64,000 nucleotides of DNA, taken from NCBI RefSeq assembly GCF_007747445.1, contig NZ_CP036425.1, positions 3,084,175 through 3,148,174 of the forward strand, written 5' to 3'. The DNA is from Poriferisphaera corsica. Its GTDB lineage: Bacteria > Planctomycetota > Phycisphaerae > Phycisphaerales > Phycisphaeraceae. Under the pieces are notes generated by a model. The model had not been told where the DNA came from. It searched no databases and saw nothing but the letters and a program-made list of their open reading frames with translations. Shown here piece by piece: positions 13,631 through 52,193 of this stretch; position 1 is the first letter of the stretch, and each line of letters starts with the position of its first letter. Both the position numbers and the translations under genes were made by a program.

Positions 13631-15295
13631 TCAACGCGTTGGCACGGGCAACATACCTCTGCGGCGTGCATCTTCATGAATATCGATGGGCTGATCCTTG
13701 TCAGACGGTTCTGTGACACGCGGTTTTTTCACAGGTTTTTCATCACCCACTCTCTCATCTGACACATCCACCAACTCATACGCTTTGAGATGATCCAAAA
13801 CGATGCGGTTGCCGCGAATGAAAGCCACACGTCTCCCTGTTTGATCGATCGTAACCACTTTTACTTGTTCATCTTGCGAATCTGAAACCCAGATCACTTC
13901 TGGCCGCTTTGAAATGGGTTGTGTATCGATCAGCATAATGAGCTGCTTCTTATTTGCGTGCAGCGGAGTCATGTACTCGATCGTCGCGGCAAGAAATCGG
14001 CCATGAATCGACCTGAGGTCAACGGACTTCACATTGCGCGTTGAAATACGCCGAGTTGTGATCTTCGGATCAATGATCCCGATGCGTTCAAAGGGCGGAG
14101 CAAGGCTTGTGAATCTCATGTAGGTGGTTGATGGGTCATAGCTTACGTGCTGATGACTTTCAGCGACAATCACAGACGCTTCGAGCAAATTAGTCTGACT
14201 CGCCATCGCGATTGAATCGGTGTTCGTGAGTACCGTACGGCTCGGCAATTGCCCGCTGAAGAAACGCGAAAGCACTGAGTCATTAGCAAGGTTGTTTGGA
14301 ACTGATTGATTGACAGAGGATTGCGCGGTTTCTTGGAAAATATCCTCAGCTTTCAGAGGCTGTTTTTCTCTGGATTCCGCTTGATGGAGCAATTCGGGTT
14401 GTGCGTTTTCGAAGGAGACAACCGTCATGGCTGGCTCGGGCCAATCCAGACGTTCAACTTGGTTTTGCCCACGAGAAATTCGATCGTAGCTGACGTTGGT
14501 TTGTTCAATGTGGGGCGCTTGCGGTAACTCGATCATTGCCAGACGTTTGCTGTTTTCAAATGTCAGGATGAATGCACTGTCATTTGAGAATGTAATCTGA
14601 GGATTGGTGAGGGTGGTCTGCAATTCAAAGCGGCTGATCAAAGTGGGTTTGAATAAGTCCTGTGAATCGTAAACACTGAAAATATAGTGTGTTGCGTTCG
14701 GAGGTAAGACAGGATCGTCGATCAATATATCGTTGGTGGTTTGAGCAGCTTCACTCTGAAAGGTGCGTAAGGTTTGAGGTGTATCAACTCGTATGAGTCG
14801 TTGGTGATCGGCACGAAGTTGCCAGGCAAGCGCGTTTTTGACGGCGGAAAGGTAATAATCGGGCAGCGGCATATCAGGAAACAACGACCATAACTTTTTG
14901 TGTCTCAGTTTGTTACCGCGGCGATATCGGCTGACGGATTGAAATTTCTCGGTCTTAAAATCAAAGATTCGGCAGCCAAACTTCTGGTCAGACATTGATT
15001 CGATCAATTGCTGCGTTTGCGTTCTCGTGAGCGTCGGCATGTCTGAAGTAGATAGCTGCTGCTCAGTTAGCGAATCTGACTGCGGCTTCTGAATTATGGG
15101 GGTAAAAACAAGCAGTTGTTCGATGTCGGAGGTTGGGAATTCAAGACGATCGATGCGTTCGAGCCGTTCCTCGGGCATGTGGATGGAAAACTGCTGATTT
15201 GTTTGTAATGTTGCTTGAGGCGCTGCGAGGAGGGGCGCGCACGAAAGCAAAGGAACGACGAAAAGCAATAGTCTGCGAAGAGTTCGTGAACGCAT
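13631..15295 (-). CDS. Exported protein of unknown function
   Basis: A protein of about 555 residues that I do not recognise. Starting at 15295 gives a classic signal peptide (MRSRTLRRLLLFVVPLLSC, cut near LAA-P); an in-frame extension to 15496 adds a non-signal-like stretch. The mature part is hydrophilic and rich in Gln, Ser and Thr, with repeated short beta-strand-like segments (for example ISRFELQTTL, AFILTFENSKRLAMIEL, RRVAFIRGNRIVLDHL) that could form a beta-propeller. The C-terminal 50 residues are charged and probably disordered. It is divergent from lptD, and a shared envelope role is only a guess. Confidence 0.6.
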   Translation of the reverse strand: MRSRTLRRLLLFVVPLLSCAPLLAAPQATLQTNQQFSIHMPEERLERIDRLEFPTSDIEQLLVFTPIIQKPQSDSLTEQQLSTSDMPTLTRTQTQQLIESMSDQKFGCRIFDFKTEKFQSVSRYRRGNKLRHKKLWSLFPDMPLPDYYLSAVKNALAWQLRADHQRLIRVDTPQTLRTFQSEAAQTTNDILIDDPVLPPNATHYIFSVYDSQDLFKPTLISRFELQTTLTNPQITFSNDSAFILTFENSKRLAMIELPQAPHIEQTNVSYDRISRGQNQVERLDWPEPAMTVVSFENAQPELLHQAESREKQPLKAEDIFQETAQSSVNQSVPNNLANDSVLSRFFSGQLPSRTVLTNTDSIAMASQTNLLEASVIVAESHQHVSYDPSTTYMRFTSLAPPFERIGIIDPKITTRRISTRNVKSVDLRSIHGRFLAATIEYMTPLHANKKQLIMLIDTQPISKRPEVIWVSDSQDEQVKVVTIDQTGRRVAFIRGNRIVLDHLKAYELVDVSDERVGDEKPVKKPRVTEPSDKDQPIDIHEDARRRGMLPVPTR

Positions 15296-42389: not shown

Positions 42390-42418
42390 CAAGCCCACGA
42401 CCGCCGGCCATGGGGTGT
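42390..42418 (+). repeat. 29-base structured repeat, copy A
   Basis: CAAGCC, then imperfect stem arms CACGACC / GGCCATG around GCC, then GGTGT. Read on the minus strand the arms pair fully using two G-U wobbles. It lies in the probable leader of glnA, in the same sense as that message. Confidence 0.7.
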
Positions 42419-42581
42419 ATGCAACACACATCCCACACCCCGTAATAACTCACAATCATACCTCAAACCCACACACCTCCCCCACCCCCATTCGACCATT
42501 TTCACTCTGTAATCCAAAATCCACCTACCTCCTGCCTAATCTTTAAGCATTGCCTAATAATCGCGCACTCTAGCCCATAAA

Positions 42582-42613
42582 AAAAGCCGACAATCCAAAG
42601 GTCATCGGCTTCA
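42582..42613 (-). terminator. Intrinsic terminator after the phosphomannomutase gene
   Basis: On the minus strand AAGCCGAT...TCGGCTT forms a six-to-seven base-pair stem with a long loop, followed by six or more T residues, about 65 bases after the stop. Confidence 0.7.
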
Positions 42614-42678
42614 TCTTAATCTTCAATTTTCGCTTGCGGCTTTTCTAGCACTAACATCTAGCACTAGCACTTGACAAA

Positions 42679-44058
42679 TTAATGCCCTTCAGCAGGCGTA
42701 CCCAAATGCGGCTCAAGTTCCTTCAACAACTTGTCCAAAGTCACCTTATCTTTCGCCTCAGCATTCAAACGCAACAGCGGCTCAGTATTCGACGCTCTCA
42801 CATTAAACCACCAACCTTCACCATCAAACGCATCAATCGACACGCCGTCCAGCTCTTCGACTGTCGCCACTGAAGCATACTTATCCTTCAGCAAGTTCAT
42901 CACACCAACTTTATCTTCAACCTCAAAGTTGATCTCACCTGATTGTGGATACTTGCGGTATGGCTCAACCAATTCGCTCAGCTTCTTACCCGTCTGCTCA
43001 AGCACACTCAACACGCATGCAAACGTAATCGCACCCGAGTCTGCATAGTTATTATCACGGAAGTAGAAGTGGCCCGACAGCTCGCCGCCAAACGCGCCTT
43101 CTGTCTCACGCAGCGCCGCCTTCATATTCACATGTCCCACCTTGCTTTTCTTTGCCTTCATTCCAAGACGTGCAATTGTTTCTTCCACAACCTTCGAGCT
43201 TCGCAAGTCATAAACAATCGTCGTCCCCGGATTGTCTTTCGCAAAGTAATACTCAGCCAGCATCGCGGTCATGTGATCGCAACCCACAACCTCACCCGTC
43301 TCATCCACCACCATGCAGCGGTCCGCATCGCCATCGAAGCATGCACCCGCCACAGCACCAATCTTCTTCACACCTTCCTGCGTCGGAATCATGTTCTCCG
43401 CCACAAGCGGGTTCGGCTCATGCACAAAGCCATTGCCCATCTCAAAGTAAACATCGCTGATCTCGAGATTCTCAACATCAAAGAACGCTTCAGGCACCAG
43501 CTTCCCAGCCATACCATTCGACCCGTCCACAAACACCTTCATCGGCTTCGTCAACGGCACCAAGAATTTCTGAATGTGCTTCCGGTACTCCGCCCAAAGA
43601 TCCTTCACTTCAAACGACCCCGTCGGTTCAGGCTTCTCACCTTCAAACGCCTTCGCGATCGCTTCAATTTCCTTCAAACCCGTATCCGCACCCACAGGCC
43701 TCGCCCCGTCCTTCGAGATCTTAAACCCGTTGTAGTTGATCGGATTGTGGCTCGCCGTCGTCTGCACTCCGCCCACCGCCTTCAAGTAAGGCACAGCAAA
43801 ATACATGAACGATGTATCACACATCCCAAGATCCACCACATCCATTCCCGTCGCTCTGATCCCCTCACTCATCGCCTTGCACAGCCCCGGCGAGTGCGGC
43901 CGCATATCACGGCTCACCAACACCAAACCCGTCTCACCACCATTATTCTTCTTCAGGTACTCACCCGTCCCATACCCGACACACCACGCAGCCTCCTCGT
44001 TCAAAGGCTCCGGATACGTCGCTCTCACGTCATACGCCTTGAAAATATTCCCAATCAT
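42679..44058 (-). CDS. Phosphomannomutase/phosphoglucomutase
   Basis: A 459-residue alpha-D-phosphohexomutase of the AlgC/ManB type, interconverting 1- and 6-phosphates of mannose or glucose for sugar-nucleotide synthesis. The phosphoserine loop is QTTASHNP (Ser103), the Mg-binding loop is FDGDADRC (Asp242, Asp244, Asp246), the sugar-binding loop is GELSGHFYF and the C-terminal phosphate-binding loop is RASNTEPLLR. Specificity for mannose versus glucose cannot be settled by eye. A GAGG site lies upstream. It would feed precursors to the lipopolysaccharide and glycan genes in the window. Confidence 0.92.
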   Translation of the reverse strand: MIGNIFKAYDVRATYPEPLNEEAAWCVGYGTGEYLKKNNGGETGLVLVSRDMRPHSPGLCKAMSEGIRATGMDVVDLGMCDTSFMYFAVPYLKAVGGVQTTASHNPINYNGFKISKDGARPVGADTGLKEIEAIAKAFEGEKPEPTGSFEVKDLWAEYRKHIQKFLVPLTKPMKVFVDGSNGMAGKLVPEAFFDVENLEISDVYFEMGNGFVHEPNPLVAENMIPTQEGVKKIGAVAGACFDGDADRCMVVDETGEVVGCDHMTAMLAEYYFAKDNPGTTIVYDLRSSKVVEETIARLGMKAKKSKVGHVNMKAALRETEGAFGGELSGHFYFRDNNYADSGAITFACVLSVLEQTGKKLSELVEPYRKYPQSGEINFEVEDKVGVMNLLKDKYASVATVEELDGVSIDAFDGEGWWFNVRASNTEPLLRLNAEAKDKVTLDKLLKELEPHLGTPAEGH

Positions 44059-44308
44059 CGAAATGACCTCTTCCTCTTTAAAACTGTTCTACGGATACCC
44101 AGCTGACAATCCCCTTCCAACTCAAATAAACCCACCCATAACCCCATTCAACCCGCCTAATCGCGGATTTCTACACTGGATAATACATCACTCGACCAAT
44201 TTCAGCATCTCCACCAACAATTTCCTCACCCAATACCAACTTTCTCCCAAATACGCCCCATAAAAATCCAAACTTGAACTTTCCACCCCCAGACAGAACA
44301 ATAACATC

Positions 44309-47300
44309 ATGTACAAACGCGTTATCTTCGTCGGAGCCGCCCTCCTCATCAGCGGCATCATCCTCGCCATCGCCCTACTTGTCGATGTCACCACATCTCC
44401 GCGCGCCAACACCCCCTCCCCCACCGACAACAATATCCCCATCGAAGACATCCGCATCCCCGAGTTCAACCCCGAAGATGTCGTCGCCAATGTCGACGAG
44501 CTCGGCCAGCAATTCCCCAACCTCTCCAACGTCAAACTCACCATCATTGAGCCTGACCGCATCATTGGCTTCGGCTGGGATCGCGTCAACCCACAAGACG
44601 AAGGTTGGCTCGAACTCATCAAACCCGTCATCCGCATCAATACCAACCCTAACATCGCACCCGCCAACCAGATCGTCGTCGTCACCGCCGACCAAGGCCG
44701 AATCCTCGCACCACAACGCACACAACTCCGCGAAGCCCAACTCCGTGGCAACGTCATCATCACCGTCTACGAAGTCCCCGAAGGCGCCTCCATCGACTTC
44801 AACTCCAATCGTGATGTCCAAATCCGCCTCACACTCGAAAATATCGACTACAACGAGCAACTCCTCGAAGCCACATCCACCCGCGCCATCACCGTCGAAG
44901 GCCCGCAAGTCCTCTTCAAAGGCGAAGGACTCGAAATCCGATTCTCCGACATCAAAAACCGCCTCGAAAAACTCGAAATCTTCAAAGGCAAATCACTCTC
45001 CATCAAACCCGAAGCGCCGCCGAAACCCCAATACACGCTCCAACCCGTCACTCACCTCAACACCACTTTAAACCATCAACAAGATCGCCCCACCAACCCC
45101 GAGCCCACACCGCCAACCCCTTCATCCGCTCGCACTCCCAAAGCACCACAGTTCTACCGCACGCGATTCGAAGACGACATCGCCATCTCCACTGACAACA
45201 CACAAACCCGTATCAATGCAGAAATCCTCGAACTCCTCTTCTCACTCGCCGCTCTCGATAACAAATCTTCCAGTAAAGACGATACCACTCCCTCACAACC
45301 CACCAAATCCACCCCTGCCACTGAACCTGAGACGCCCGCCGCAGACAACACAACCACCCCCACCCCATCACCCGACGCCCCCATCTTCGTCCCCGATCCC
45401 GCCAAAGATATCAACATCTACTGGACCGGTCGCCTTGTCATGGAGCCACAAGTCGTCCCACCAGCCGACCTCGCCGACGACCGCGACGTCCTCATGACCC
45501 TGCGCGGCTCCGGCATCAACCCCGTCAAAATCATCACCGCCAAAGGCGAGTCCGTCACAGCCTCCGACGTCTCTTATCTCCGCTCAACCTCACGCCTCGC
45601 AGCCACAGGCACCACCGCTCACCCACTCACGGTTATCTCCAAAGACGGCAAAATCTCCGCTCAAAAATTCCAGATCGATCAAGCCAAAGCCTCCGGCTTC
45701 ATCACCGGCCCCGGACGCATCGCCGCCGAATCCGAAGATGCCAACATCAACGGCACAACCATCACCTGGCAAGACCGCCTCGACCTCGCCTTCTACCTCA
45801 AAGACAAAGCTCAAGACCGCGACCCCAACAACATCAACCTTGGCGAAATCGATCTCATCGACGCCGTCAAAACCGCAACCTTCCACGGCTCCCCCGTCAT
45901 CACATCTCGTGATCTAGACATCAAAGCTACCGATAATCTCACCATCAAACTCTCACAAAAACAAGGCTCTCGCCAAAACCCGCTCTCCCTCACCGGCAAC
46001 ACTGCCGTCTCACTTTCCGCACGCAACAACAACCAAAACATCAACATCGATGCTGATAAACTCGATATCTCTCTCACACAAAACGCCGAAGGCAATACCG
46101 TCCCCTCACGAATCTTCGCGCAAGACAACGTCAAAACCGACGCACCTCAGCTCACCCTCGAAGCCGGCCTCCTCGACCTCACCCTCAACCCCGACAACCT
46201 CGACGATATTCAACTCACATCTAATACAAAGTTAGACGAAGCCGACACCAACCCTCAACCAGAAACCCAACCCACACCCGAACAACCCCAAGCAGACGAA
46301 CCCCCAATCGTCACCTTCCCCAAATCTCCAGAAGAAATTCTCGAAGAATATAAAACAGCCGAAAAACCTCAAACACCTGAAAAACAAGACGAAACACTCG
46401 ACCTCGCCACACTCAACTTCTCACGTCAATTCCAAGCCGTCCAGAAACTTGTTGCCGAGCACAACGTCAAAGTCCACATCAAAGACCAAGACATGAAAGC
46501 CTTCGGCGAACGCCTCGTCATCACCGGCGAAACTCAAGAACTCATCATCGCCGGCACAACCCAAAACCTCGCCGTCATCAACCACAACGACGCCACCATC
46601 ACCGGCGAAAACCAAATCATTTGGCGAAACCTCACCAACAACGTCTTCATCCCCGGCAAGGGTTCCATGCAACAAACCCAATCCAATCCCGATAAAGACA
46701 CACTCACCTCCATCACATGGAACAAATCCATGACCGCAAACCTTGCCACCGGTCAAGCCGACTTCGACGGCAACGTCCTCCTCATCTCTGACACCAAACA
46801 AGCCTCCCTCACACCCACTAACCCAGCCAACAACCAACGCAAAGAAGATGTCGTCGAACTCAAAACCGACACCCTCAACGTCAAATTCAGCACCAAAAAC
46901 AACACATCTAATACTGTATTAGATCAAGCCAAAGAATCCTCAACCAACACCGACACACCACTCAACAACGTCGTCGGCAACAACAAAATTCAGTTCGCAC
47001 GAGCCACCGGCCCATCCACCAAATTCACCGCCACAACCTTCGGCCTCAACAACGCCAACAAACGAACCACACAATTCCGCTTCACCCTCGCCGGTAACCG
47101 CGATATCTCATTCAACGGCCAAAACGAACGCATCAACATCATCGGCCCCGGCAACATCCTCATCGAAGACTATCAACCCCGCTCGCCCTCATCCCCCCAA
47201 TCCACATCCACAGCAACCAACCCCATCGCGGGCATGCAGGTCACCGGCGAAGGCAAAACCGTCTTCACCTGGCAAAAATCTCTCACACTCGACGCCGCTC

Positions 47301-47707
47301 GCAATGACATGCTCATGGTCGGCTCAGTCTTCATGATCCACGAACCCGCCTCCGGCTCAGACACCGTCCAAATGGACGCAAACCGCCTCTATGCCAAGCT
47401 CAACGACGCAGGTGGACTCGGCTCATGGATGTCCGATGAAGGCTCGCCACAGCCCGACCTCCAACTCATCCGCGCCGACGGCAACGTCAAACTCCAATCC
47501 TCAGGCTACACCATCTACTCAAACGACCTCCAATATACCGGCGCAGATCAACTCATCCTCCTCTCCTCAAACGAAGGCGAAGAAGTCCGCGTCGAAGGTG
47601 GCAAGTATCCCATCCCACCCGCCAAGGAAATGGAATACGACGTCGCCAAAGACCGTTTCACCGCCCGCGACGTCACCGGCGGCTTCGTCCCAATCCCCCA
47701 AAACTAA
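44309..47707 (+). CDS. Giant OstA/LptC-like periplasmic protein
   Basis: An 1132-residue protein with an N-terminal helix (about residues 4-26) and a long beta-rich periplasmic part. Residues about 60-245 resemble an LptC domain (GRILAPQ, LREAQLRGNVIITVYE, ENIDYNEQLLEATSTRAITVEGPQVLFKGEGLEI). A Pro/Thr-rich linker (about 255-350) is followed by several OstA/LptA-like stretches (for example VTASDVSYLRSTSRLAATG; AFGERLVITGETQELIIAG). LptC is normally about 190 residues and LptA about 180, so this could fuse bridge functions in one chain. It would then link inner-membrane lipopolysaccharide extraction to LptD. Two CTAA-N7-TTAG dyads lie inside. Confidence 0.66.
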   Translation: MYKRVIFVGAALLISGIILAIALLVDVTTSPRANTPSPTDNNIPIEDIRIPEFNPEDVVANVDELGQQFPNLSNVKLTIIEPDRIIGFGWDRVNPQDEGWLELIKPVIRINTNPNIAPANQIVVVTADQGRILAPQRTQLREAQLRGNVIITVYEVPEGASIDFNSNRDVQIRLTLENIDYNEQLLEATSTRAITVEGPQVLFKGEGLEIRFSDIKNRLEKLEIFKGKSLSIKPEAPPKPQYTLQPVTHLNTTLNHQQDRPTNPEPTPPTPSSARTPKAPQFYRTRFEDDIAISTDNTQTRINAEILELLFSLAALDNKSSSKDDTTPSQPTKSTPATEPETPAADNTTTPTPSPDAPIFVPDPAKDINIYWTGRLVMEPQVVPPADLADDRDVLMTLRGSGINPVKIITAKGESVTASDVSYLRSTSRLAATGTTAHPLTVISKDGKISAQKFQIDQAKASGFITGPGRIAAESEDANINGTTITWQDRLDLAFYLKDKAQDRDPNNINLGEIDLIDAVKTATFHGSPVITSRDLDIKATDNLTIKLSQKQGSRQNPLSLTGNTAVSLSARNNNQNINIDADKLDISLTQNAEGNTVPSRIFAQDNVKTDAPQLTLEAGLLDLTLNPDNLDDIQLTSNTKLDEADTNPQPETQPTPEQPQADEPPIVTFPKSPEEILEEYKTAEKPQTPEKQDETLDLATLNFSRQFQAVQKLVAEHNVKVHIKDQDMKAFGERLVITGETQELIIAGTTQNLAVINHNDATITGENQIIWRNLTNNVFIPGKGSMQQTQSNPDKDTLTSITWNKSMTANLATGQADFDGNVLLISDTKQASLTPTNPANNQRKEDVVELKTDTLNVKFSTKNNTSNTVLDQAKESSTNTDTPLNNVVGNNKIQFARATGPSTKFTATTFGLNNANKRTTQFRFTLAGNRDISFNGQNERINIIGPGNILIEDYQPRSPSSPQSTSTATNPIAGMQVTGEGKTVFTWQKSLTLDAARNDMLMVGSVFMIHEPASGSDTVQMDANRLYAKLNDAGGLGSWMSDEGSPQPDLQLIRADGNVKLQSSGYTIYSNDLQYTGADQLILLSSNEGEEVRVEGGKYPIPPAKEMEYDVAKDRFTARDVTGGFVPIPQN

Positions 47708-47780
47708 TCATCCCTCCCTCAATCTCACAACCCTCAAACCATACCCGCTTAATGGGTACTTCATCACACCAACTCAAGCT

Positions 47781-47809
47781 CAAGCCCATGACCTCCGGTC
47801 ATGGGGTGT
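47781..47809 (+). repeat. 29-base structured repeat, copy B
   Basis: CAAGCC, perfect stem CATGACC / GGTCATG around TCC, then GGTGT. Lies between the OstA/LptC-like gene and the GNAT gene. Confidence 0.75.
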
Positions 47810-47851
47810 CAACACAACCAACATCCAATCACCTACTCAATCCCACCCAGA

Positions 47852-47870
47852 ATCTAACTTCCAGTTAGAT
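47852..47870. repeat. CTAA-N7-TTAG dyad with extended arms
   Basis: Perfect seven-base arms ATCTAAC / GTTAGAT around TTCCA, about 60-78 bases upstream of the GNAT gene start. Confidence 0.6.
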
Positions 47871-47929
47871 GTAGAATCAATCAGCCGCGACTCTTTAATC
47901 CCCCAAGCAAACACACCGGATTTCCTCTC

Positions 47930-48430
47930 ATGCCCACCATCTACAACGTCCACGACCTGCCCGCACCCTCATCGAACATCACACTCGATGACGCGATCAA
48001 CTACATCCACACCAAATGGGGCGGCGAATCAAACTTCAATTTCTACCAAAACGCCATCCGCCATTCCTCCACCACCGCTCTGCCCCAGTTCTTCATCATG
48101 CTCGACGACGCTCCCCCCTCCAATCAAACCATCATCGGCTGCTCCGCCCTGCTCACCAACGACCTCATCTCACGTCAAGACCTGTACCCCTGGATGGCCT
48201 GCCTTTTCATCGAGGAATCCCACCGCGGCCGCGCCCTTGGCAACCTCCTCTCCGAACGCGCCGTCACCGCCGCCCACGCCGCCGGCTACCCCAACATCTA
48301 CCTCTACACCGATCACGTCGGCCTTTACGAAAAGTACGGCTGGACCCATCACACTGACGCTTACAACCCATTTGAAGCCACCCCCTACCGCGTCTACACA
48401 AAATCCACAGTTCCTCCTTCTACAACCTAA
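47930..48430 (+). CDS. GNAT-family N-acetyltransferase
   Basis: A 166-residue cytosolic enzyme expected to transfer an acetyl group from acetyl-CoA to an amine. The acetyl-CoA binding motif A is visible: LFIEESHRGRALGNLL with the R-x-x-x-G-N/L turn, preceded by the MACLFI strand, and followed by YLYTDHVGLYEKYGW, the typical GNAT motif B. The substrate is unknown. The plus strand is very C-rich here. No strong ribosome-binding site is seen before the ATG. Confidence 0.82.
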   Translation: MPTIYNVHDLPAPSSNITLDDAINYIHTKWGGESNFNFYQNAIRHSSTTALPQFFIMLDDAPPSNQTIIGCSALLTNDLISRQDLYPWMACLFIEESHRGRALGNLLSERAVTAAHAAGYPNIYLYTDHVGLYEKYGWTHHTDAYNPFEATPYRVYTKSTVPPSTT

Positions 48431-48462
48431 CACACATCACGCTTAATCCGATATGATTCTCC

Positions 48463-48491
48463 CAAGCCTGCCACCGCCGGTGGCAGGGTGT
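48463..48491 (+). repeat. 29-base structured repeat, copy C
   Basis: CAAGCC, perfect stem TGCCACC / GGTGGCA around GCC, then GGTGT. The stem sequence differs from copy B at several positions on both arms, yet pairing is kept. Confidence 0.75.
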
Positions 48492-48598
48492 TTGAAACAT
48501 GCACCATCGTTACCTGCACCAACAACAACCCCATCGCCCTCCTATCGCCCCCTCGCAATCGGGTTTTGGAATAAGACGCGACCTCAATAGCGGCCAAC

Positions 48599-48613
48599 CT
48601 AACCAACGATTAG
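48599..48613. repeat. CTAA-N7-TTAG dyad
   Basis: CTAACCAACGATTAG, intergenic. Inner bases do not pair fully; only the CTAA/TTAG ends are conserved. Confidence 0.5.
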
Positions 48614-48791
48614 AAGCACCCACAAAACTACAAAACAAAACGCTACTTTATCAGGGGGCTGATACGGTCGCTTTGCCTTCGCCTCAATCCTGTCGCCGCC
48701 AGTAGCCGGATTATACGAAGCGCACACCATCGCTATCTTCCCCATAGCTCCCGTGTAACCGAGTTTTAAAAGGCGCCCCAATAACGCAAAA

Positions 48792-48806
48792 CTAATCAAT
48801 GATTAG
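48792..48806. repeat. CTAA-N7-TTAG dyad
   Basis: CTAATCAATGATTAG, a perfect six-base inverted repeat with a three-base centre, intergenic. Confidence 0.58.
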
Positions 48807-48828
48807 ACGAAATCGTAAAACAATAATA

Positions 48829-48874
48829 CAAAACGCGCGCACAAATCGACATGTGTTTTTGCGTGCGCGTTTTG
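48829..48874. repeat. Long inverted repeat
   Basis: Arms of 17 bases (CAAAACGCGCGCACAAA and its partner ending GCGCGTTTTG) match at 15 positions around a 12-base centre. The left arm contains ACGCGCGCACAAA, found exactly again at 12751-12763. It may act as a terminator or a protein-binding site. Confidence 0.6.
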
Positions 48875-49000
48875 CAAACTTCCCAAAACTCATCATTTCG
48901 CAACTTTTCTTAGCCAATTCCCATCGTTTCCAATCCCAAACAGCTCAAAACTCATGTTTTTTTATCCACACCCCTTTTCTCCACAACTTCCACACACACA

Positions 49001-49019
49001 ACCTAACCGTAAGTTAGGT
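49001..49019. repeat. CTAA-N7-TTAG dyad with extended arms
   Basis: Perfect arms ACCTAAC / GTTAGGT around CGTAA. Confidence 0.6.
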
Positions 49020-49138
49020 ATGCACTTGCAACAACCGCCGCACATAACACACAACTTTTGTGCGCACATCAATTGTGAACGAAATCTTCATAACTCAATT
49101 TGTGCGCACAACCCCACCATCACCTCAGACCACCATCA

Positions 49139-49168
49139 CAAAAAAACCGCCCCATCAGGAGCGGCTCA
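49139..49168 (-). terminator. Intrinsic terminator for metG
   Basis: On the minus strand the stem AGCCGCTCC / GGGGCGGTT with a TGAT loop is followed by six T residues, about 65 bases after the metG stop. Confidence 0.82.
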
Positions 49169-49235
49169 TCAGCTTTCAATTTCACACCCAACCCCCGCTT
49201 GCGATCTATCCAGAGCTTAGCCCCTAGACCCTGAT

Positions 49236-50831
49236 TTACTTCCGGGGAACCTGATATCGCATGAACAGTGGATCACCCTTCTGGATCTCCGTGCCCGGCT
49301 GCAGGTGACCCCACATCGCCCACTGATCCAACTTGCCTATCCCATTGTCAGCCAAAGCTTTGCCGTAATCCGCAAAACCAATGCGGCCCCAGAACACTTC
49401 AACCTTATTCGGGATCAACGGCCAGAGTAGCACCGATGCGACGCGTAATGCCTCAGTACAGTTGTACAAAATCGTTCCCACTTCAGGCATCTTCTCTGGA
49501 TCCTTCGCCAACTTAAAAGGTGCTGTTCGCTCGATGTAGTTGTCGATCGCCCGCACGATTTCCAGCGCCGCACCCGCCGCCTTCTCGATATGCAAGCTAT
49601 CCATCGCTGCCTTGTATTTACCTAAACATTGTTCAGCAATATCGTTATATTCCTCTGACAACGGTACGTGTGGGCCATGCTCCGGACATTTCCCATCGAA
49701 GTATTTACCGATCATGTTCGAGATACGTGAGCCGCAGTTCCCAAACGTGTTTGCCAAATCGCTGTTATATGCCTCAATAAAGCGTGCTTCAGAGAAGTCG
49801 GAATCGGTCGCCCCAATCGGCCCCTTCGTTGCGAGGAACCAGCGAAGCGCATCCAAGCCAAAGGTATCGACATAGTGATCGATTTTCTTCAGATCGATGA
49901 AGTTACCAAGTGACTTACTCATCTTTTGGCCTTCACTGATGAAGAAGCTGTGAGCGTAAACCACCTTCGGCAAAGGCTTTTCGAGTGCCATCATGAGCGC
50001 CGGCCAAATCGCGGCATGGAACCAAAGGATATCCTTTGCCATGATGTGAACGTCCGCCGGCCAATATTTTGCCCGCTCATCCGTATCCACAGCAGACAAA
50101 TAGTTAAACAGCGCATCGACCCAGACATAGATCGTGTGCTCTTCATCGCCGGGGATTGTGATCCCCCAATCGGTCATGCCGGTACGGGTCATAGGGACGT
50201 CGTGCAGGCCGTCCTTGATGCGAGCGACAATCTCGTTCTTACGCGCTGCCGGCTGCACATCAAATTCATAACCATTGACTACTTCGCCACTTTCAAGAAG
50301 TTTCAGAAGCTCGCCCTGATACTTGCTCAGCTTGAAGAAGTAATTTTCTTCGGTTTTGCGAACCAGCGGTTTGCCATTGACCGGGGATTTGAAGTCGTAT
50401 TCTTTGGCTTTGTTTTCAGGAACATATTCTTCCTGTCCCGCGTCGTACCAGCCTTCGTACTCGCCGAGATAGACATCACCCGAGTCGAGCAGTTGCTTGA
50501 CGTATTTGGTGACTTTGATTTTATGGCGATCTTCGCTGGTGCGAATGAAATCATCGTTGGACATGCCAAGTCGATTAAAGGTTGCCTTGAACGCATCGGC
50601 GTTCTTGTCGGCCCATTGCTGTGTTGTAAATCCTTGCTCTGCAGCAGTATCGACGACTTTGGTTGCGTGTTCGTCGGTGCCGGTGAGGAAGAAGGTATCT
50701 TTCCCGAGTAGGCGGTTGTAACGGGCCATAACGTCGGCAATCAGCGTTGAGTAGACGTGCCCGATATGCGGCTCGCCATTGACGTAGTAGATGGGTGTGG
50801 TGACGTAATAGGTGTTCTTGTCCTGATTCAT
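49236..50831 (-). CDS. metG: Methionyl-tRNA synthetase without C-terminal tRNA-binding domain
   Basis: Charges tRNA-Met with methionine. The 531-residue protein shows the class I signature PHIGHVYS (HIGH-type, near residues 17-24) and KMSKSLGNF (KMSKS). The short connective-peptide region lacks the four-cysteine zinc knuckle, as in the zinc-free bacterial branch. The chain stops just after the LQPGTEIQKGDPLF segment; in longer relatives (about 650 residues) a linker and a tRNA-binding dimerisation domain follow here. Such a domain is encoded separately at 21627-21974. Confidence 0.95.
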   Translation of the reverse strand: MNQDKNTYYVTTPIYYVNGEPHIGHVYSTLIADVMARYNRLLGKDTFFLTGTDEHATKVVDTAAEQGFTTQQWADKNADAFKATFNRLGMSNDDFIRTSEDRHKIKVTKYVKQLLDSGDVYLGEYEGWYDAGQEEYVPENKAKEYDFKSPVNGKPLVRKTEENYFFKLSKYQGELLKLLESGEVVNGYEFDVQPAARKNEIVARIKDGLHDVPMTRTGMTDWGITIPGDEEHTIYVWVDALFNYLSAVDTDERAKYWPADVHIMAKDILWFHAAIWPALMMALEKPLPKVVYAHSFFISEGQKMSKSLGNFIDLKKIDHYVDTFGLDALRWFLATKGPIGATDSDFSEARFIEAYNSDLANTFGNCGSRISNMIGKYFDGKCPEHGPHVPLSEEYNDIAEQCLGKYKAAMDSLHIEKAAGAALEIVRAIDNYIERTAPFKLAKDPEKMPEVGTILYNCTEALRVASVLLWPLIPNKVEVFWGRIGFADYGKALADNGIGKLDQWAMWGHLQPGTEIQKGDPLFMRYQVPRK

Positions 50832-50901
50832 GGCCTAATTGTACGATCCAGCGGGTGAATGGGAAAATTGTTGCATGAGATGTGGTGAGCGTGGTTTGCT
50901 A

Positions 50902-52101
50902 TCAGGAGGCGGCGGACTCGAGGCTAGCTTCTTGCTGCTTCCGGGCGAGTTTGAATTTGCGGCGGGATTGCCGCTTTTTGAGGTAGAGGTAGAGACCTGA
51001 GATGAAGAGGACGCTGGGAACGAAGCCGAGCAGGACGTAGAACGCTTGGGAGAACGGGCCGGCCCATGTGCCGAAGTGGAGCCAGGTTGACCAGTCCATG
51101 AGGACGGAGCCGAGGGGTTGATTGCTGCCGGTTCGGTCGGAGATGCGCATGATGACGCCGCCCTGCCGGGCGAGTGTGATGGTGTATCGGCCGGGGACGG
51201 ATTCATCCGTGGGTCGGCCGACGAAATTGACACGCTGTGGTTTATCGACAGGTGCTTTCAGGAAGAGTGCGCCGTAGATTTCAATGTCATCACGTTGCTG
51301 TTGTGCAGTGGTGAGCATTTGGCCTAACGGTTGGATAGGCGCATTCAGATCGACCTCGGCTGCTACGGTTTGCGGTTGCGGGATGATGGCATCAACGATG
51401 GGTTTAAAGATGATGTATGAGCCTGTGATGGTGGTGACGATGAGGAAGATGAGTGATGTGGCGCCGAGGAGGCCGTGTATGTCCCAGGCTAATCGACGAA
51501 TCGATTGGAGATTGATTTTAAATCGTTGTTTGAAAAGCTTGGGTTTGAGTCCGGGCCACCAAAGCCAGAGGCCTGAGGCGAGTAGGAGGATCGCGAAGAT
51601 GGATGCAAAACCGTTGAAGAACCATCCAGGAATCTTGGCGAGCCAGTGCATGTGTACGGCGTAGATAAAATTGAAAAATGTACCGTAGTAGGGACGGTCA
51701 CCGAGTACTTGGTAGGTGATTGGGTGGACGGCAACTTCACGTATCTGATCACCCCAGCCAAGGTTGTCGGTGTTGTCGGGGCGGTTGATATACATGACGT
51801 AAACATGGGCATCTTTGGAGAGATAGATGCGTGCGATGTCACGGTCGGGGTAGAGATCGGTGCCTATCTGGTGAACGCGTTCGATGCCTTGCGTGTTGTC
51901 GATTTGAGAGAGCTGTTGCGGGGTGAGGTCGAGCTCGTGAAATTGAGGGGTGAGGGTCTCGTTGATTTGCTCGTGGAATACGAGAATGGAGCCGGTGAGT
52001 CCCATGACGAGGAGGTAGAGGCCGACGGAAAGGCCAAGAAGCAGGTGTATGTAGTACACGCTGCTTCTGAGGAATCGTTTGATAGATCTTTTAGGTTTCA
52101 T
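50902..52101 (-). CDS. PepSY-associated transmembrane protein
   Basis: A protein of about 399 residues; the ATG at 52101 is preferred over an in-frame start at 52173, because the family opens with a basic stretch and a helix (RSSVYYIHLLLGLSVGLYLLVMGLTGSILVF). It has four to five membrane helices, the first two enclosing a periplasmic PepSY-type region, and a short cytoplasmic Lys/Arg-rich end. Relatives often sit beside TonB-dependent receptors and are linked to ferric-siderophore reduction. Here the neighbour is a prepilin-like gene. It may be an electron-transfer or metal-uptake protein; the partner is unknown. Confidence 0.8.
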   Translation of the reverse strand: MKPKRSIKRFLRSSVYYIHLLLGLSVGLYLLVMGLTGSILVFHEQINETLTPQFHELDLTPQQLSQIDNTQGIERVHQIGTDLYPDRDIARIYLSKDAHVYVMYINRPDNTDNLGWGDQIREVAVHPITYQVLGDRPYYGTFFNFIYAVHMHWLAKIPGWFFNGFASIFAILLLASGLWLWWPGLKPKLFKQRFKINLQSIRRLAWDIHGLLGATSLIFLIVTTITGSYIIFKPIVDAIIPQPQTVAAEVDLNAPIQPLGQMLTTAQQQRDDIEIYGALFLKAPVDKPQRVNFVGRPTDESVPGRYTITLARQGGVIMRISDRTGSNQPLGSVLMDWSTWLHFGTWAGPFSQAFYVLLGFVPSVLFISGLYLYLKKRQSRRKFKLARKQQEASLESAAS

Positions 52102-52164
52102 GGGGTGATCCGCTCGAAAATACGTGATCTTGGAATGATTTGGTAGCTGGGGATAGGCTGCGAG

Positions 52165-52193
52165 ACACCGCATGGCCGACGGTCGTGGGCTTG
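52165..52193 (-). repeat. 29-base structured repeat, copy D (inverted)
   Basis: Reads on the minus strand as CAAGCC, arms CACGACC / GGCCATG around GTC, then GGTGT-type end (GCGGTGT). It differs from copy A at only two or three positions but lies in opposite orientation. Confidence 0.72.

What the first reader, a model, noticed from the sequence alone, without database searches (positions are those of the whole stretch)
42390..52193. Four-copy 29-base structured repeat with compensatory stem changes
Copies at 42390, 47781, 48463 and (inverted) 52165 share CAAGCC at one end and GGTGT at the other, exactly 29 bases long. The seven-base arms differ between copies (CATGACC/GGTCATG versus TGCCACC/GGTGGCA), yet pairing is maintained. 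Copies A and D pair through G-U wobbles only when read on one strand, so that strand is probably the functional RNA or single-strand form. Similar text (an ATC and a following ACC) continues about 25 bases past GGTGT. This resembles REP-type palindromes or a structured leader. Copy A lies in the likely leader of glnA.
Basis: partly seen in the sequence, partly recalled or inferred. Interest (0 to 1): 0.55.

Follow-up and report, generated by a model that had tools for sequence, protein, structure and literature searches.

The report
Strand-locked REP hairpins marking skew domains
The four hairpin repeats belong to a family of about 150 small mobile-type DNA hairpins in a marine planctomycete, probably spread by one transposase-like protein, and their direction follows a strange zigzag in the base composition of the two DNA strands that looks as if copying of the chromosome started at many places.

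Summary
The four copies belong to a family of about 150 in this 4,291,168-bp genome (Poriferisphaera corsica KS4, identified by exact length). On 109 aligned copies 98.1% of pair cells hold a standard pair and 163 cells show two-sided changes. It behaves as a DNA element, not a leader: 103 of 112 copies lie outside called ORFs, gene orientation is random, and wobble rescue is equal on both strands (11 v 11). A 180-aa HUH/Y1 protein (TnpA_REP/RAYT-like), 181 kb beyond the window, has copies at its flanks; many planctomycete homologues have their own flanking hairpins, often with an AAGCCC foot. So: a REP-like family with its RAYT, without the GTAG tag and rarely paired.

Orientation gave something unexpected. 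Both Poriferisphaera chromosomes show a sawtooth GC skew (up to about +-0.6): sharp rises 17-51 kb apart, gradual falls, independent of gene strand, and not seen as a regular pattern in samples of 23 other genomes. All 112 copies examined are oriented by it (CAAGCC strand C-rich); nearly all near mapped jumps point toward them. IS200/IS605 elements record fork direction elsewhere, so initiation at many sites is possible but unproven.

The parts
42390..42418 (+). Copy A, hairpin CACGACC/GGCCATG, between two minus-strand ORFs (glnA-like and phosphoglucomutase-like, named by recall from their translations)
42419..42452 (+). Copy A, degenerate 3' tail as aligned
47781..47809 (+). Copy B, hairpin CATGACC/GGTCATG
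47810..47843 (+). Copy B, degenerate 3' tail (TCCAATCACCTAC)
48463..48491 (+). Copy C, hairpin TGCCACC/GGTGGCA (second subfamily)
48492..48525 (+). Copy C, tail of the TGCCACC subfamily (TTTGAAACATG...)
52165..52193 (-). Copy D, hairpin CACGACC/GGCCATG; overlaps the first ATG of ORF 50902-52173, so a later start of that ORF is likely (inference)
52131..52164 (-). Copy D, degenerate 3' tail
48980..51980 (.). Upward GC-skew jump (cumulative minimum about 50480; 1500 bases drawn on each side); copies A, B, C lie left of it on +, copy D right of it on -, so all point toward it

Best explanation
The repeats are REP-like elements: a 29-base DNA hairpin (9-bp stem, 3-base loop) with a 3' tail, spread through this genome by a chromosomal HUH/Y1 tyrosine protein of the TnpA_REP (RAYT) kind, encoded once at genome position 3329508-3330047. 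The protein presumably binds the hairpin in single-stranded DNA, cuts and rejoins beside it, and so inserts copies only on the strand that is exposed during DNA synthesis. That fixes the orientation of each copy relative to the local strand asymmetry. Shown: family, covariation, extragenic position, RAYT-like gene with copies at it, similar architecture at many homologues, orientation lock. Inferred: that this protein moves them, by single-strand chemistry, and that the lock arises at insertion.
For: About 150 copies and strong compensatory change. Copies avoid genes: 9 of 112 inside called ORFs at a coding fraction of 0.74. Only two Y1_Tnp matches in the genome: one is an 85-aa fragment, the other a 180-aa ORF with an inverted pair of copies just downstream and a degenerate 29-mer with both ends just upstream; chance of two model hits within 200 bp of it is 5e-4. 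HxH and Tyr are invariant in 12 and in 21 aligned homologues. The model of homologue L244 (mean pLDDT 86.1, its N-terminal third mostly low) has as its first 30 Foldseek ranks only chains that I take for IS200/IS605-type transposases (ISDra2, IS608 and others), the REP-bound RAYT 4er8 at rank 24; the best E is 0.004. Homologues carry hairpins on both flanks at 30 of 89 loci, one flank at 18, none at 41; 1.29 per kb against 0.14 in control DNA, where 1 of 204 windows had both; 67 of 102 hairpins contain AAGCCC/GGGCTT. The congener with 2 model hits has no RAYT match. Orientation lock 112 of 112 fits the review PMC5371812 (passages): orientation of IS200/IS605 elements recapitulates replication direction.
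Against: No GT[AG]G or CnGA foot. Only one inverted pair within 400 bp among 150 hits, so the REPIN unit held to be mobile elsewhere is nearly absent; close pairs of any kind are 4 against 2.1 expected. 41 of 89 homologue loci have no such hairpin, among them L244, whose protein was modelled. Own protein barely passes Pfam (23.1 v 23 bits), scores 17.5 v 80 bits for NCBIfam's RAYT, and sits on a long branch without a supported clade. By sequence the family's profile finds Y1 transposases in the PDB only at E 0.08 and above. One genome (G012) has AAGCCCACG hairpins (8 forward and 8 reverse matches, perhaps the same 8 sites) and no RAYT match. One copy, half of the pair at the RAYT gene, points away from the nearest jump. 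No movement has been observed.
Confidence: 0.8

Rival explanations
1. RNA elements: terminators, leaders or mRNA-stabilising hairpins selected at transcript ends.
For: Convergent gaps hold 31 copies, divergent gaps 13, at similar available length (23.2 and 24.1 kb). Stems are kept by compensatory change.
Against: A T-rich stretch after the stem is rare: 11 of 109 copies on the CAAGCC strand, 10 of 109 on the other. Orientation to genes is random (25 v 32); wobble rescue equal on both strands (11 v 11); no Rfam match in the window at gathering scores; orientation follows GC skew, which does not follow gene strand.
Confidence: 0.08
2. Host-maintained polar DNA sites, as KOPS or replication-arrest sites are, read by a chromosome protein and pointing toward the skew jumps.
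For: 112 of 112 oriented by skew; 22 of 23 model hits in two contiguous stretches point to the nearest jump and lie nearer than chance (median 3.9 v 9.2 kb, p 5e-4).
Against: 5 of 16 jumps have no copy nearest to them; the congener has the sawtooth with only 2 model hits; stem variety and RAYT flanks fit a mobile element better. Both could be true if the host adopted the repeats.
Confidence: 0.1
3. The orientation lock is secondary: copies inserted both ways and those in one orientation were lost or mutated beyond recognition.
For: The tail is C-rich and G-poor on the CAAGCC strand, as are its surroundings.
Against: The hairpin pattern used for finding copies favours neither G nor C strongly and still gives 112 of 112; half-decayed copies in the wrong orientation should remain. 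The one exception in the contiguous stretches is half of the inverted pair at the RAYT gene.
Confidence: 0.1

Closest known systems
REP/RAYT (TnpA_REP) systems, e.g. E. coli and Stenotrophomonas maltophilia REPtrons (PMC8266576, passages)
   Same: High-copy extragenic hairpins; one HUH/Y1 gene flanked by copies; the 8-bp stem with 3-base loop in S. maltophilia is close to the 9-bp stem and 3-base loop here; stem subfamilies.
   Different: Foot CAAGCC / GGGTGT instead of GTAG; a 3' tail; almost no inverted pairs; orientation locked to local skew.
TnpA_Y1 class 3 (Quentin et al. 2018, PMC6006769; sections 13, 27 and passages)
   Same: Mainly Planctomycetes, Acidobacteria, Proteobacteria; long conserved N-terminal part; atypical flanking hairpins, many copies in a genome.
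   Different: Foot given as CnGA, here mostly (C/G/A)AAG; Y----Q not kept in the own protein (Y----V). Their profile was not available, so membership is open.
TIRYTs (PMC3733652, section 16 and passages)
   Same: Tyrosine transposases flanked by non-GTAG repeats, some in repeat families.
   Different: Described as long terminal repeats, some with motif GGGGWSAS, some self-complementary; figures were not seen, so overlap with the present hairpins cannot be judged.
N-shaped replication skew domains of mammalian genomes (recalled, no call)
   Same: Sharp upward jumps, gradual decline.
   Different: Here in a bacterium, amplitude up to about 0.6, tens of kb, no replication data.

Membership tests
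REP elements (broad sense) | Short hairpin in high copy number, mostly between genes | tested here: met
REP elements (broad sense) | Pairing kept by compensatory change | tested here: met
   (four of five measures above all shuffles)
REP/RAYT (REPtron) | A single Y1 gene with copies at its flanks | tested here: met
   the upstream copy is degenerate
REP/RAYT (REPtron) | HUH and Tyr residues | tested here: met
   HAH and YIKRH in own protein; invariant H99, H101, Y165 in A2
REP/RAYT, GTAG superfamily | Unpaired GT[AG]G at the hairpin foot | tested here: not met
   CAAGCC on one strand, ACACC on the other (both ends were part of the search pattern)
REPIN/BIME | Copies mostly in close inverted pairs | tested here: not met
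   1 inverted pair within 400 bp among 150 hits
REP/RAYT (REPtron) | Protein cleaves and joins its REP in single-stranded form | not testable with these tools
   needs purified protein
TnpA_Y1 class 3 | Foot CnGA | tested here: not met
   own foot CAAG; most homologue hairpins GAAG, AAAG or CAAG
TnpA_Y1 class 3 | Y----Q signature and class profile | tested here: inconclusive
   Q in some homologues only; profile not held
Intrinsic terminator | T run after the stem | tested here: not met
   11 of 109 and 10 of 109 copies, by strand

The most novel reading that the evidence does not exclude
Poriferisphaera chromosomes start DNA synthesis not only at oriC but at on the order of a hundred fixed sites, tens of kb apart. 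The sawtooth skew is the mutational trace, and the REP copies, inserted into the exposed strand of passing forks, are weather vanes that record local fork direction independently.
Probability: 0.2. Interest if true: 0.96.

Novelty: new variant of a known kind. Interest (0 to 1): 0.76.

Why it matters
The repeat family suggests that a planctomycete RAYT lineage has its own REP architecture, often with an AAGCCC foot. More important, its orientation lock exposes a chromosome whose strand asymmetry flips every few tens of kilobases. If the cause is replication, a bacterium uses many initiation sites; if not, an unknown strong strand-biased process radiates from fixed sites. Either way it is testable with one sequencing experiment on a cultured strain.

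Tried and rejected
A codon-usage ORF caller was biased by the skew and picked ORFs on the G-rich strand; its context counts were discarded and replaced by an amino-acid-composition caller. A motif at the jumps: no k-mer of 7 to 10 bases stands out after the number of tests (16 jumps). DnaA boxes within 1.5 kb of 16 jumps: TTWTNCACA 9 against 4.0 expected, TTNTNCACA 11 v 6.5, TTATCCACA 2 v 0.7, no clusters; a weak excess at best. Inversions as cause of the sawtooth: rejected, because they would give sharp falls as often as sharp rises (2-kb steps above +0.3: 11 and 7 in two stretches; below -0.3: 1 and 1). Transcription direction as cause: rejected, genes on the G-rich strand 75 of 152, 30 genes in flat zones not counted. 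Second Y1 match at 580601: a fragment with no copy seen beside it. Class 3 membership through Solibacter usitatus could not be tested: it is not among the 80 loci kept of 209. Searching papers for the repeat's letters: of 254 papers that hold at least one of the short words, the 20 listed look like chance matches by title; the other 234 were not seen, and none of the 20 holds the two long words.
Full report
Observation. The genome holds 141 matches to the outer pattern against 12 for the reversed pattern, and a covariance model of 67 positions, built from 109 copies, lists 150 places (that is also the number scored, so a floor). In 552,890 bp fetched mostly around copies, 119 places match CAAGCC-N16..19-GGTGT; 109 of them are 29 bases long with at least 5 of 7 arm pairs, and 84 of these have all 7. 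Ten rows were dropped for the alignment. On the 109 aligned copies, all different as 67-mers, 98.1% of 981 pair cells are standard pairs and 163 cells differ on both sides from the commonest pair (shuffled mean 48.6). Four of five measures exceed all 500 shuffles; the number of pairs with a two-sided change (4 of 9) does not. Sliding the partner by 1 to 3 columns leaves 26 to 55% paired. The shuffles do not correct for relatedness, but up to five pair types at one position leave little doubt.

Anatomy. CAAGCC and GGTGT are invariant by the way copies were found; the inner ACC/GGT is nearly invariant, the four middle pairs of the stem vary. A tail follows, and a second subfamily (TGCCACC stems) has a different tail.

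Context. With an ORF caller based on amino-acid composition (coding fraction 0.74; the published coding density is 84.2%, PMC7783415, passages), 9 of 112 copies are inside called ORFs, 57 in tandem gaps (25 same strand, 32 opposite), 31 convergent, 13 divergent, 2 at edges. A T-rich stretch follows the stem in 11 of 109 copies on one strand and 10 on the other. This is typical of REPs and not of a leader or terminator.

The transposase. Pfam Y1_Tnp matches twice in the genome. One match is a fragment. The other is a 180-aa ORF at 3329508-3330047. Downstream lie two copies in inverted orientation; upstream lies a 29-mer with both ends intact and a decayed stem. The protein has HAH and YIKRH in the HUH and Tyr positions. 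It is a weak Pfam match (23.1 v 23 bits) and far below NCBIfam's RAYT cut-off (17.5 v 80). Homologues occur in 59 of 151 genomes of the order, the own one included; 209 relatives were found in the genome collection, and of the best 80, which alone are listed, 76 have planctomycete titles. A model of homologue L244 (44% identical to the own protein) has mean pLDDT 86.1, residues 11-50 low. The first 30 Foldseek ranks are chains that I take for IS200/IS605-type transposases, 4er8 (RAYT with a REP hairpin) at rank 24; best E 0.004, TM 0.37 to 0.61. The sequence profile reaches PDB transposases only at E 0.08 and above.

Homologues have their own repeats. At 89 non-redundant homologue loci (of 109), perfect hairpins of 8 or more pairs lie within 450 bp on both flanks at 30, one flank at 18, none at 41; density 1.29 per kb against 0.14 per kb in 17 control stretches of 20 kb, where 1 of 204 mock windows had both flanks. 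67 of 102 hairpins carry AAGCCC or GGGCTT. On a tree of 83 homologues (of 90; 7 lacked the motif used to place them) the hairpin label needs 13 changes against 27.7 for shuffled labels (0 of 500 as low); proteins with the HxEGD motif, as the own one has, show hairpins in 27 of 31, HxSGD-type proteins in 9 of 38, the rest in 7 of 14. The own protein is on a long branch without a supported clade. AAGCCCACG-N9-CGTGGG occurs in 37 of 151 genomes (reversed control: 2 matches in all). Counted by hand, these are 29 of 59 genomes with and 8 of 92 without a RAYT match (Fisher 4e-8, not corrected for kinship). Two-footed hairpins match on both strands, so match numbers overstate sites. A strict form of the own pattern occurs in none of 40 relatives, and at E <= 0.001 with stricter filters the model finds 2 copies in the congener, none in 39 others.

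The orientation lock. Flanks of copies are C-rich on the CAAGCC strand. With 1-kb flanks, element excluded, 112 of 112 copies (28 or 29 bases, at least 4 of 7 pairs; 7 of the 119 matches dropped) have negative GC skew on that strand, mean -0.37; with 300-bp flanks 109 of 112. 61 copies are on plus and 51 on minus, and the sign of local skew changes 37 times along the genome from copy to copy. The two copies in the congener obey the rule as well. Orientation of the model hits outside the fetched DNA was not tested.

The sawtooth. 1-kb windows are bimodal. In 264 contiguous kb that include the window there are 9 upward jumps of at least 0.45 and one downward, mean spacing 27.2 kb. In 320 kb around dnaA there are 6 more above the threshold, one visible below it at about 145 kb, and no downward one; spacings there are 34 to 51 kb. 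One lies 7.9 kb from the contig start, where dnaA is. Third codon positions carry it whichever strand a gene is on (plus-strand skew -0.69 and -0.60 in negative, +0.50 and +0.57 in positive domains); gaps between genes too (-0.43, +0.25). Genes on the G-rich strand: 75 of 152. The congener shows it in two sampled regions, 180 kb with 5 upward jumps and 1 downward, and large swings around two rRNA genes, but not in 60 kb at 1.0 Mb. Of 23 other genomes of the order (6 with 80-100 kb, 17 with 20 kb) none shows the regular pattern; mean absolute 2-kb skew is 0.03-0.21, against 0.27 here; G023 has one strong local change (to -0.47), and G105 a constant bias. Twenty kb is short, so a weaker or partial form could be missed. 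The jump beside dnaA falls between the same two orthologous neighbours in both species.

Relation of copies to jumps. In the two contiguous stretches 22 of 23 model hits point toward the nearest jump; the exception is one half of the inverted pair at the RAYT gene. Copies lie closer to jumps than uniform positions do (median 3.9 v 9.2 kb; p 5e-4). 5 of 16 jumps have no copy nearest to them, the one beside dnaA among them.

What could make it. A review (PMC5371812, passages) states that IS200/IS605 elements use the lagging-strand template and that their orientation recapitulates replication direction. Read so, skew and copies both say that local fork direction flips at the jumps, as in a chromosome with many start sites; 16 jumps in 584 kb would mean roughly 120 in the genome if even (extrapolation). 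For it: sharp rises with gradual falls; an ordinary oriC polarity on top (windows in 0-2.1 Mb: mean +0.07, 57.5% of 240 positive; beyond 2.2 Mb: -0.13, 28.9% of 180; stretches placed by me at round positions, one at 2.1 Mb not counted). Against it: no shared motif and at best a weak DnaA-box excess; no gene co-orientation; the single 16S gene found is on plus in a negative domain, which would be head-on; part of the congener lacks the pattern; no bacterium is known to me to do this. A strand-biased process radiating from fixed sites for another reason, such as break repair, is not excluded.

Print record. Neither species paper mentions GC skew in its main text (PMC7783415, PMC10945688; passages); the listing counts one 'GC skew' in PMC10945688, outside the main text I could search, perhaps a map legend. 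PMC12288469 names skew only in the legend of another species' genome map (passage). Searches for alternating or sawtooth skew, skew with Phycisphaerae or P. corsica, and multiple bacterial origins listed no paper that, by title or start of abstract, reports it, 15 of 33 papers were listed. The library holds open-licence papers only. SkewDB (PMC8941118, passages) mentions anomalous chromosomes and holds no word beginning with planctomyc.

Verdict. REP-like family with its RAYT: a new variant of a known kind, confidence 0.8. The orientation lock and the sawtooth are firm as observations; their cause is open and is where the interest lies.

Noticed in passing
own genome, sampled stretches; in the window jumps near 13900 and 50480: Sawtooth GC skew, up to about +-0.6, sharp up and gradual down, in both Poriferisphaera species.
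   Followed up: partly
G000:C1:230415-231842 and G001, G047, G052, G074: A second DnaA-like match covering most of the TIGR00362 model in all five genomes searched (in G074 in pieces), above its cut-off only in the two Poriferisphaera.
   Followed up: no
G000:C1:2842364-2843872: The only 16S rRNA gene found is on plus in a negative-skew domain, head-on if skew shows fork direction.
   Followed up: partly
G000:C1:573039-576780: A 1246-aa ORF contains two repeat copies (573749, 574655).
   Followed up: no
G000:C1:3534104-3534388: Three copies in tandem at a 128-base period.
   Followed up: no
L088, L094, L100, L101, L105: Hairpins of the same type within the homologous transposase genes, some near the stretch between HUH and Tyr motifs, as described for subclass 2.4 in PMC6006769.
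   Followed up: partly
L032:1924-2169: A small HTH protein gene lies next to the repeats downstream of the RAYT gene.
   Followed up: no
G012: AAGCCCACG hairpins (8 forward, 8 reverse matches) without a RAYT match: orphan repeats or a gap in the assembly.
   Followed up: no
window 52171-52173: The first ATG of ORF 50902-52173 lies inside copy D; the real start is probably later (inference).
   Followed up: no
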